Below, piece by piece: positions 2,443 through 10,327 of a DNA stretch of 64,000 bases. Origin of the DNA: Fimbriimonadaceae bacterium (GTDB taxonomy: Bacteria; Armatimonadota; Fimbriimonadia; Fimbriimonadales; Fimbriimonadaceae). A program made the translations under genes and the position numbers. A model generated the notes under the pieces. That model saw only the letters and a program-made list of their open reading frames with translations, was not told where the DNA came from and did not search any database. The DNA lies in the NCBI GenBank assembly GCA_019454125.1, contig CP075365.1, forward strand, positions 310,001 to 374,000, in the 5' to 3' direction. Every line of letters begins with the position of its first letter. The stretch's first letter is position 1.

Positions 2443-2709
2443 TCACCGGATCCGGTCAGCCTTGCCGCGCCGGATCATCGCGTCCACGATGTCGTCGCCC
2501 GACACGTTGTACGTGCCGGCTTCGATGCGCGCCTTCAGTTCGGCGACCATGTCATCACGGTCGGGCGTTTCCGCCACTCTTCGCGTGACGGCGGCGATGA
2601 GGTCCGCGTCCGTTAGTTTGATCACTGCCGTGTCCACCTCGTTCTCGGTGGGGGTGACTCGCGGCCCGTTGGCCGCGACTTTTTCCAGTTGTTCCAGCGA
2701 AATTTTCAT
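2443..2709 (-). CDS. flgM: FlgM-like anti-sigma-28 factor
   Basis: An 88-residue protein resembling FlgM, which holds the flagellar sigma factor FliA inactive until the hook is complete and is then exported. The conserved C-terminal sigma-binding part is seen as DDMVAELKARIEAGTYNV followed by SGDDIVDAMI, matching the family pattern of VAxLKxxIxxGxYxVD with a downstream amphipathic helix. The N-terminus is short and polar as expected for the export region. A strong ribosome binding site (gaaggagg) stands six bases or so ahead of the ATG. Together with motA and flagellin in this window it supports a motile organism. Small size keeps the call short of certain. Confidence 0.82.
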   Translation of the reverse strand: MKISLEQLEKVAANGPRVTPTENEVDTAVIKLTDADLIAAVTRRVAETPDRDDMVAELKARIEAGTYNVSGDDIVDAMIRRGKADRIR

Positions 2710-2913
2710 AAGCCTCCTTCAATCTATCCTTTGCGAGGCAACCCGGCTGTCTGCGTGAGACCCGTGGCTTTGCGTGATCGGGGTCGCCCCCGTCTTGCCC
2801 TTAAACTGCCAAGGCTTATTGTTGCTAGTAGGTATGACGGGACGTCCCGGCGACCTCTTTAGGGTGCGCCCGTAAGAAAAATGTAAGAAAAGAGGACACC
2901 CCGTTTTTCTGAG

Positions 2914-7831: not shown

Positions 7832-8455
7832 ATGAAAATTGTCAAGGTTTCAACTCTAGCCACCCTTCTCGCCCTCGCCGGATCGGCGTCGGCCATCACC
7901 GACCCGGTCGGGGACTTCATCCCCACCTACACCGGCCCGCAGGCGGGCGACGTCGACGTGACAAGCGCCAGCGTCCAATACGACGGCACGAGCTTCATCT
8001 TCCACGCGGAGATGGCGGCCAACATCGGTTTGACCCAAGGCGCGCTCTACATCTGGGGGCTGGACCGCGGCCAAGGGACCGCCCGGTTCTTCCCGGACCT
8101 GCCGCAGACCGAGCAGATCAAGTTCGACAGCGTCCTCTTGATGCGGCCGGACGGGTCTGCCACGGTCAACCGTATCGTCGGTGGCGGACAGACCAACTTC
8201 GACCCGGGCTCGGTGCTCATCTCGGGCAACCGCCTGAGCTTCACCGTGGCCGCGAGCGAGTTCCCCACGCTCGGGCTTTCCCCCGACAAGTACACCTGGA
8301 ACCTCTGGCCCCGCGTCGGCACCGGCCAGAACAGCCAGATCAGCGACTTTGCCCCGGACACCACGAACGCCAGCGTCGAGGTCGTGCCCGAGCCGGCCAC
8401 ACTCACGTTCGTGGGTGCGGCGGCTTTGGCGCTGCTCCGAAGAAAGCGGAAGTAA
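7832..8455 (+). CDS. PEP-CTERM sorting-signal protein
   Basis: A 207-residue secreted protein. It starts with a signal peptide (MKIVKVSTLATLLALAGSAS|A) and ends with a PEP-CTERM tripartite signal: VPEPATL, a short hydrophobic helix (TFVGAAALALL) and the basic tail RRKRK. In known systems an exosortase recognises this tail and releases the protein to the envelope or matrix. The middle region, with alternating hydrophobic strands (VDVTSASVQYDGTSFIFHAE), looks beta-rich and has no recognised enzyme motif. No exosortase is in this window. A strong intrinsic terminator follows. Confidence 0.85.
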   Translation: MKIVKVSTLATLLALAGSASAITDPVGDFIPTYTGPQAGDVDVTSASVQYDGTSFIFHAEMAANIGLTQGALYIWGLDRGQGTARFFPDLPQTEQIKFDSVLLMRPDGSATVNRIVGGGQTNFDPGSVLISGNRLSFTVAASEFPTLGLSPDKYTWNLWPRVGTGQNSQISDFAPDTTNASVEVVPEPATLTFVGAAALALLRRKRK

Positions 8456-8492
8456 GCGGACGCCACGGCGTCGAAAGACTGTCCTCTTGCAT

Positions 8493-8521
8493 GGCGGGGC
8501 TCCCAAAGCCCCGCCTTTTTT
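8493..8521 (+). terminator. Intrinsic terminator after the PEP-CTERM gene
   Basis: A perfect 9-bp stem (ggcggggct paired with agccccgcc) with a five-base loop is followed directly by six T residues. It is placed 38 bases after the stop of the PEP-CTERM gene and just before the next start. Confidence 0.92.
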
Positions 8522-8537
8522 GGTAAACACCCAAGCC

Positions 8538-9134
<597 letters not shown>

Positions 9135-9151
9135 ACCTTCATAATAACGGC

Positions 9152-10327
9152 ATGGTCGCATGGCTTGCCGCCCTCGCCCTCGGCACCGCGCAGGAAGCCC
9201 CTGACCGGGACAGTTTCAGGCGCTGGCTCGCCTTCATCCAGCCGAGCGAGAAGGAGCAGGCCTACAAGCTGGTCGGCTGGCGTAACAAGTTCTGGCCCGC
9301 AGTCGAAGAGGCGAGGAAACTCGGGCGGCCTATCCTCTTCTGGACGATGAACGGCCACCCGCTCGGCTGCACGTGAAACAACGGCGTCCGTGGACGCCAA
9401 GAGGTCTGGTCAGACCCCGAGATCCAAAAACTTAGCCGAGAGTTCGTCACCGTCGCGGACGAGGTCTACATGCTCTATCCGGAGGACTCCGGCAACCTGG
9501 CGCGGGTGCAGAACGACCCCGCCCACCTGTTCTTCAAGAAGTTCGGCGAGTCCATGCCCAAGGGCGACTGGAACCATCCCGGGACGAAGCAGGGCGTCTA
9601 CATGATCGGGCCGAACGCAGAGTATCTGGAGGGGAGGTTCGCCGCTTCTTCGGACCCGGCCGACATGCAAGCCCGCCTTCGCAGGGCCCTCGCCCGCTGG
9701 GAAAAGCTGCGCGAGGAGAAGGGATATGCCGGGAAACCGGTGCCTGCGGTGAAAACCACCATGCCACCGGAGGTGGAAGGCGGGTTCGTCCTGCGGGTCA
9801 ACATGCGCGACCTGCCGCGAGGCGACGGCGACGACAGCGGAGCGAGGCACGAAGACAGGGACAGGAGCGGCGACCCCTGGATCGGGTTCACCCAGTGGGC
9901 GTGGAACGAGAAGTGGATCGGTCTGGAGACGGGCTACCCGTTCGTGCCCGAGGGCTCCGAAGTCGAAGTGGTGGACGAGGCGGTCGTCGGCAGGATCTGG
10001 CGCGAGATGCTGGTCGACAATGTCCGGGGCCAAGCGCCGGAGTGGCGGCCGCAGGACGTGAAGAAAGCCGTGCTCACGAAGGGCCGCATCGCCGAGGCAG
10101 ACGGCACCGTCACCATCGAGTTCCGCGGGGAAGCGATGATGAACGACGGAAGCCGAGGCTATGAGGCGACGGTCTACGGCCAGGGCACCTGGAGCAAGGA
10201 CGCCTGGGAGTTCACGTCGTTCGACCTTGTGGCGGTCGGGATGCGTAAGGGGGCGTCCCGGTTTAACCAGCGCGAGAACGACCTCGGCCCCGCTCCGATG
10301 GGCGTGACCCTCAGCCTTTACCGCTAG
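9152..10327 (+). CDS. Candidate selenoprotein: thioredoxin-like secreted protein with in-frame TGA (CxU motif)
   Basis: One frame runs from ATG through a single TGA at 9374-9376 to TAG at 10325-10327, giving 391 residues if the TGA is decoded. The part before the TGA has a signal-like start (MVAWLAALALGTAQE) and then LGRPILFWTMNGHPLGCT; the part after begins NNGVRGRQEVWSDPEIQ and EFVTVADEVYMLYPED. This layout (a strand, then a Cys-rich turn, then a helix and second strand) resembles a thioredoxin fold with the active site at Cys73-Thr-Sec75. Two hairpins immediately follow the TGA, the second with a GG-starting loop at a spacing usual for bacterial SECIS elements. No ATG-led gene starts cleanly after the TGA: the first ATG there lies inside conserved-looking sequence. 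Alternatives are a nonsense mutation or a base error. No sel genes are in this window. Confidence is for the single gene; the Sec call is about 0.65. Confidence 0.7.
9383..9416 (+). promoter_or_regulatory. Possible bacterial SECIS hairpins directly after the in-frame TGA
   Basis: Two perfect hairpins follow TGA 9374-9376. The first is ggcgtc/gacgcc with loop cgtg (9383-9398). The second is ggtct/agacc with loop ggtc (9403-9416); its loop begins 31 bases after the TGA and its first two bases are G. Bacterial SECIS elements are stem-loops inside the coding region, about 16-37 bases after UGA, with a G among the first two loop bases, so the second hairpin fits. SelB binding is not proven. Confidence 0.5.

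What the first reader, a model, noticed from the sequence alone, without database searches (positions are those of the whole stretch)
9152..10327. Candidate selenoprotein: in-frame TGA in a thioredoxin-like gene
One reading frame continues through a single TGA at 9374-9376 with coding-like sequence on both sides (74 codons before with a signal-like start, 316 after). The TGA is at a CxU position, Cys73-Thr-X75, in a GHPLGCT-X-NNG loop where a redox active site is expected. Downstream there is no good independent start. I infer selenocysteine; a mutation or a base error are alternatives.
Basis: partly seen in the sequence, partly recalled or inferred. Interest (0 to 1): 0.85.

Follow-up and report, generated by a model that had tools for sequence, protein, structure and literature searches.

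The report
Widespread uncatalogued exported selenoprotein family
The apparent stop codon in this gene is read as selenocysteine, the rare 21st amino acid, and the gene belongs to a large family of probably exported, redox-type proteins found across many bacterial phyla that is absent from the selenoprotein catalogue and family libraries I could check.

Summary
The frame 9152-10327 runs through one TGA (9374-9376). Homologues were found by protein similarity, with the TGA position entered as Cys. In 62 of 70 aligned loci the TGA falls at exactly this column. Across 291 Armatimonadota genomes, 73 of 75 strong hits read through a TGA; one has Cys there and one is cut off before the site. The same 2.65 Mb genome carries tRNA-Sec, selA, selB and selD, and selD has a TGA at its own Sec position. 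Genomes with the TGA form have selA in 38 of 39 cases, against 48 of 112 others (Fisher 1e-10). A hairpin after the UGA fits the bacterial SECIS model, is more stable than synonymous recodings, and shows compensatory changes in Planctomycetota/Verrucomicrobiota relatives.

The protein has an export-signal-like start, a Trx_7/DUF255-type thioredoxin-like domain with Sec at the nucleophile position (GCTUNNG, usually CxU), and a C-terminal domain with no confident fold match. A motif scan found the family in Planctomycetota, Verrucomicrobiota, Armatimonadota, Chloroflexota and others. No NCBIfam or Pfam model claims it, and a 2026 list of 119 selenoprotein families lacks it. Sec insertion is near-certain; an extracytoplasmic oxidoreductase is likely; its substrate is unknown.

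The parts
9152..10327 (+). Selenoprotein gene, 391 aa with U75, TAG stop
   Evidence: Open frame read with TGA=U; TGA at the same column in 62 of 70 aligned homologue loci
9152..9199 (+). Hydrophobic N-terminus that looks like an export signal (MVAWLAALALGTAQEA)
   Evidence: Sequence; similar short hydrophobic N-termini in homologues. No signal-peptide predictor was run.
9374..9376 (+). In-frame TGA = Sec75, in GCTUNNG
9368..9370 (+). Cys73 codon, likely resolving Cys of a CxU pair
   Evidence: Cys in 44 of 52 members of A1; absent in a few, and moved to position 74 (CU) in the GDPRGHCUQNG clade
9383..9398 (+). First RNA helix GGCGUC/GACGCC downstream of the UGA
   Evidence: Minimum free energy fold; sequence largely kept in clade A
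9403..9416 (+). Putative bSECIS hairpin GGUCU-GGUC-AGACC, apical loop 31 nt after the UGA
   Evidence: codons GTC, TCA and GAC invariant in 16 of 16 clade A genes
9236..9712 (+). Thioredoxin-like domain (about residues 29-187)
   Evidence: AF2 pLDDT 92.7 for the whole protein; Foldseek 3ira and 3f9u; profile match to 3f9u E=6e-4
9764..10324 (+). C-terminal domain (about residues 205-391), conserved W255 and DNVRG 289-293; no confident fold match
   Evidence: AF2 of the domain pLDDT 91.8; no PDB match with E<=0.001; seen only in this architecture among relatives

Best explanation
Window 9152-10327 encodes a selenoprotein. SelB, carrying Sec-tRNA(Sec), reads UGA 9374-9376 as selenocysteine, helped by a hairpin just downstream. 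The product is probably exported. Sec75 sits at the N-terminus of the first active-site helix of a thioredoxin-like domain, where the nucleophilic Cys of a CxxC motif lies. Cys73 (CxU) is the probable resolving partner. Together they most likely act as an extracytoplasmic thiol/disulfide-type oxidoreductase or peroxide reductase, and the C-terminal domain probably serves substrate or partner binding. Shown by sequence evidence: TGA conservation, the sel genes, the conserved RNA structure, the domain match. Inferred: export, redox chemistry, the role of the C-terminal domain. Unknown: the substrate. The confidence given is for Sec insertion at this codon; for the oxidoreductase role it is about 0.75.
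For: In-frame TGA at one column in 62 of 70 homologue loci, found with a query carrying Cys there. 73 of 75 hits of at least 200 bits in 291 Armatimonadota genomes hold an in-frame TGA; one (L073) has Cys. tRNA-Sec 78 bits with anticodon TCA, selB 360 bits, selA 456 bits, selD above cut-off with a TGA in CAGUASK. Co-occurrence with selA 38/39 against 48/112, Fisher p=1.2e-10. bSECIS-like hairpin at or below -4 kcal/mol in 85% of 162 genes against 27% of other windows of the same genes. Mean -6.1 against -2.9 kcal/mol for synonymous recodings. RNAalifold stem with 4 of 5 pairs compensated and 98.7% of cells paired, 0/500 shuffles as high. Fold: AF2 pLDDT 92.7, 3ira and 3f9u. In the profile alignment U75 pairs with the first Cys of GYGCVNC of 3f9u.
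Against: There is no experiment. Folded alone, the window hairpin is not exceptional against dinucleotide shuffles (z -1.5 and -0.3), so the RNA case rests on the family, not on this one sequence. Cys73 is not invariant. No conserved operon partner was found, so function has no context support. Export rests on reading the N-terminus only.
Confidence: 0.96

Rival explanations
1. Nonsense mutation or sequencing error in an ordinary thioredoxin-like gene (pseudogene).
For: A single stop inside one frame is the usual look of either; a shorter ORF starts at 9470.
Against: The same TGA occurs at the same column in dozens of separately sequenced genomes with no other stops. Flanking protein and synonymous sites are conserved.
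Confidence: 0.01
2. TGA is reassigned (for example to Trp) in this lineage.
For: An in-frame TGA is read through.
Against: 18 of 37 long non-overlapping ORFs in the window end in TGA. No homologue has Trp at the column. tRNA-Sec with anticodon TCA and the whole sel set are present.
Confidence: 0.005
3. Two separate products: a short 74-aa protein ending at the UGA plus a second protein from ATG 9470, with read-through only as regulation.
For: The ATG at 9470 opens a 285-aa frame.
Against: The predicted fold is continuous across the TGA, with a strand before it and the active-site helix after it. Residues 76-105, between the TGA and ATG 9470, are highly conserved and hold the conserved hairpin. 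The family tracks selA.
Confidence: 0.02
4. It is a selenoprotein, but Sec acts alone (peroxidase, or metal/metalloid binding) and not through a CxU redox pair.
For: Sec is fixed while Cys73 is replaced in several members (GMTU, GTTU, GSTU) and shifted to CU in one clade.
Against: 44 of 52 members keep Cys73; the domain family is thiol oxidoreductase-like.
Confidence: 0.3

Closest known systems
VPGUxxT family thioredoxin-like (seleno)protein, types 1 and 2 (NCBIfam NF041382, NF041383; OS_HP5)
   Same: Thioredoxin-like, Sec-containing; weak profile similarity to 7-8 of 52 members (best E 4e-4) and to 8 of 62 cross-phylum members.
   Different: No hit for the window protein at E<=1; a genome search with the type 1 model gives no match over its 350-bit cut-off in 151 relatives. 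Different motif: GCTUNNG, not VPGUxxT.
Trx7/PDZ domain-containing selenoprotein (NF041199, CxxU)
   Same: A thioredoxin_7-type domain fused to a second domain in a selenoprotein.
   Different: No member hit the model; motif CxU rather than CxxU; the second domain is not recognised as PDZ by Pfam.
Thioredoxin_7 (PF13899), DUF255/Thioredox_DsbH (PF03190); structures 3f9u and 3ira
   Same: Fold of the N-terminal domain; conserved A...KP..L and VW[ST]DPxV stretches.
   Different: The second Cys of CxxC is Gly here; the Cys lies two residues before Sec; an extra C-terminal domain is fused.
Thioredoxin-like selenoprotein Sec.1 (PF13192, CxU)
   Same: CxU motif in a thioredoxin-like protein (listed in PMC13188914).
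   Different: Different Pfam family; no PF13192 match among the families reported for the members.

Membership tests
Bacterial selenoprotein | In-frame TGA conserved at one column in homologues | tested here: met
   62 of 70 loci; 73 of 75 strong hits in the phylum
Bacterial selenoprotein | Cys at the column in some homologue | tested here: met
   L073 PSCDDCNAP (268 bits); remote relatives L074, L076, L077
Bacterial selenoprotein | Sec machinery in the genome (selA, selB, selC, selD) | tested here: met
Bacterial selenoprotein | bSECIS hairpin: loop 16-37 nt after UGA, G in the first two loop positions, stem of at least 4 bp | tested here: met
   Window loop GGUC at 31 nt, 5-bp stem; covariation in relatives
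Bacterial selenoprotein | bSECIS free energy at or below -7.5 kcal/mol | tested here: inconclusive
   Window simple stem alone -4.7 kcal/mol; 46-nt segment with both helices -16.4
Bacterial selenoprotein | Selenium in the protein | not testable with these tools
   Needs mass spectrometry or 75Se labelling
VPGUxxT thioredoxin-like (seleno)protein NF041382/NF041383 | Score over the curated cut-off | tested here: not met
   Window protein has no NCBIfam match at E<=1
Trx7/PDZ selenoprotein NF041199 | Match to the model | tested here: not met
   No member matched
Thioredoxin_7 (PF13899) | Profile match over the gathering score | tested here: inconclusive
   8 of 52 members match weakly, best E 2e-4; the window protein itself does not
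Thioredoxin-like fold | Structural match of the N-terminal domain | tested here: met
   AF2 model against 3ira E 5e-5 and 3f9u E 1e-3, probability 1.00

The most novel reading that the evidence does not exclude
This is an undescribed, nearly obligate selenoprotein family: exported, with a rearranged active site (UxxG with the Cys moved upstream: CxU, CU or none) and a new C-terminal domain, spread through phyla hardly covered in the selenoprotein literature read here, several of them with aerobic members. It may have been missed because discovery methods depend on abundant Cys homologues, and this family has almost none in the phylum surveyed.
Probability: 0.7. Interest if true: 0.7.

Novelty: new variant of a known kind. 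Interest (0 to 1): 0.62.

Why it matters
A selenoprotein family present in well over a hundred contigs from about eight phyla (by record name) is missing from NCBIfam, Pfam and the most recent catalogue I could read, so its genes are probably annotated as two fragments or as truncated proteins. The catalogue's authors describe aerobic bacteria as rarely keeping selenoproteins (PMC13188914). A family of apparently exported selenoproteins in Planctomycetota, Verrucomicrobiota and Armatimonadota would make that testable in cultured strains. It also shows a blind spot of methods that need Cys/Sec pairs.

Tried and rejected
The search for related loci with the alignment found nothing because it back-translates Sec as Cys; a TGA-bearing DNA pattern worked instead. 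A plasmid search found no match. Gene neighbours were scanned with Pfam to find a partner: no family occurs in more than 3 of 67 neighbours. Foldseek of the C-terminal domain alone gave no match with E<=0.001; START-like hits at E 0.02 have TM below 0.25 and were rejected. Pseudogene and code-reassignment readings were tested and rejected. The C73/U75/N76/N77 invariance in A3 was not used as evidence because the search pattern imposed it. Assigning hairpin types by their own pairing is biased, so the covariation claim rests on a set chosen by protein motif with RNAalifold. A clade A DNA alignment (A7) came out of register because of wrong coordinates and was not used.

Full report
Observation. 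The frame 9152-10327 is open apart from TGA 9374-9376; read as U it gives 391 residues with GHPLGCTUNNG. The window lies at 310001-374000 of a 2,652,248-base single-contig genome. An ATG at 9470 opens a 285-aa ORF, so 'no good independent start' is too strong, but the stretch between the TGA and that ATG is among the most conserved of the protein. TGA is otherwise an ordinary stop here: 18 of 37 long ORFs in the window end in it.

Homologues. A search of 151 related genomes with the protein, carrying Cys at position 75, found matches in 46, nearly all with one TGA inside. Extracting and aligning 70 loci put the TGA at the same column in 62; the other eight have Cys (4), Ser (2) or Asp (2). A profile search of 291 Armatimonadota genomes gave 75 hits of at least 200 bits: by my count of the table 73 carry an in-frame TGA (one of these, G164:C93, has several stops), one (L073, G094) has Cys at the column, and one is cut by a contig end before the site. 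Sec75 is fixed in the 52-member alignment A1, all of which are TGA forms, while Cys73 is Cys in 44 of them. In one clade (GDPRGHCUQNG) the Cys is adjacent to Sec, and a few members have none.

Machinery. tRNA-Sec (78 bits, anticodon TCA), selB (360 bits), selA (456 bits) and selD (above cut-off) are in the same genome. SelD has its own TGA in VACAGUASK, the known Sec position of that family (position from own knowledge of SelD). Over 151 genomes, selA is above cut-off in 38 of 39 with a TGA-bearing homologue and in 48 of 112 others (Fisher one-sided p=1.2e-10). The exception, G102, is a 73% complete assembly. Remote non-TGA homologues lie mostly in genomes without a listed selA (G007, G024, G035, G045, G074), with exceptions (G006, G016, and G094, which carries both forms). 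This test does not correct for relatedness of the genomes.

RNA element. The published bacterial SECIS model asks for a loop 16-37 nt after the UGA with G in its first two positions and a stem of 4-16 bp (PMC13188914). In the window a 5-bp hairpin GGUCU-GGUC-AGACC has its loop 31 nt after the UGA. Over 162 genes, such a hairpin at or below -4 kcal/mol follows the UGA in 85%, against 27% of other windows of the same genes. Synonymous recoding with each gene's own codons weakens the mean from -6.1 to -2.9 kcal/mol, and no set of recodings comes near the observed mean. In 16 clade A genes Val-GTC, Ser-TCA and Asp-GAC of the hairpin are invariant; codon identity at invariant-residue columns is 0.83 inside residues 76-92 against 0.58 outside. 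In 45 Planctomycetota/Verrucomicrobiota-type genes chosen by protein motif, RNAalifold predicts a 5-bp stem, 4 pairs of which show compensatory changes; 98.7% of cells pair, 20 cells change on both sides, and 0 of 500 shuffles match. Taken alone the window hairpin is not unusual against shuffles.

Distribution. Record names give Planctomycetota 60, Armatimonadota 20, Verrucomicrobiota 16, Chloroflexota 5, Poribacteria 2, Actinomycetota 2, and single cases of others. Some names are probably wrong: two 'Actinomycetota' and one 'Methanoregulaceae' contig match sequences from Armatimonadota genomes. The window protein falls in a clade of 29 rows with full local support holding Armatimonadota and Planctomycetota, so the family has moved between phyla or is old in them.

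Protein. AF2 on the 52-member alignment gives pLDDT 92.7 and pTM 0.90. The N-terminal domain matches 3ira, 3f9u and AGR2/AGR3. The profile aligns with 3f9u so that U75 meets the first Cys of CVNC and G78 the second; U75 directly precedes the helix 76-85. This is the nucleophile position in thioredoxin-like proteins (established knowledge of the fold). The models carry Cys in place of Sec. The C-terminal domain (pLDDT 91.8) has no PDB match at E<=0.001 and among relatives occurs only in this architecture. Short hydrophobic N-termini suggest export (inference). Neighbours are diverse.

Known or new. No NCBIfam model matches the window protein at E<=1. Over 52 and 62 members only weak hits appear, chiefly to VPGUxxT families; Pfam gives weak Thioredoxin_7 and DUF255. 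The 2026 table of 119 prokaryotic selenoprotein families has no GCTUNNG entry and none that is tied to this domain pair. Library searches for selenocysteine with Armatimonadota or Fimbriimonas found nothing; selenoprotein with Armatimonadetes found one paper, which does not describe it in the passages read. Discovery methods lean on Cys homologues, which may explain the gap. Two relevant papers (Haft & Tolstoy 2025; Deng et al. 2026) could not be read, so prior mention is possible.

Verdict. Selenocysteine insertion at 9374-9376 is as well supported as sequence data allow. A redox role is likely from fold and motif. The substrate, the export and the C-terminal domain's job are open.

Noticed in passing
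window 2734-2809 (-) and 2443-2709 (-): A c-di-GMP-I riboswitch (Rfam 45.5 bits) lies directly upstream of an 88-aa minus-strand ORF that looks like a FlgM-type anti-sigma factor (the FlgM likeness is by eye only).
   Followed up: partly
window 8349-9134 (+), ending 17 nt before the selenoprotein gene: Upstream gene whose product appears to be a TMEM175-like channel; the Pfam TMEM175 family was found in 2 of 67 neighbour proteins scanned, so co-transcription is possible here but it is not a conserved partner.
   Followed up: partly
G000:C1:887229-888206 (-), loci L087/L088: SelD of the same genome is itself a selenoprotein (VACAGUASK) and would be split or truncated by ordinary annotation.
   Followed up: yes
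L058, L061, L063-L069, L071: A divergent subfamily with Cys adjacent to Sec (GDPRGHCUQNGxKTR) and a CCAGRC/GUCUGG hairpin after the UGA.
   Followed up: partly
L075 (G118); genomes G156 and G164: L075 is a longer relative with TGA in GRCUGGA followed by more than 600 further residues; genomes G156 and G164 hold six or seven family matches each.
   Followed up: no
L074, L076, L077: Remote Cys relatives with a conserved CANARTLR motif in place of the Sec loop and a different C-terminal part.
   Followed up: no
L116, L128, L157 (genome contigs): Contigs named Actinomycetota or Methanoregulaceae whose gene matches Armatimonadota sequences; probable binning or naming errors in the public records.
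   Followed up: no
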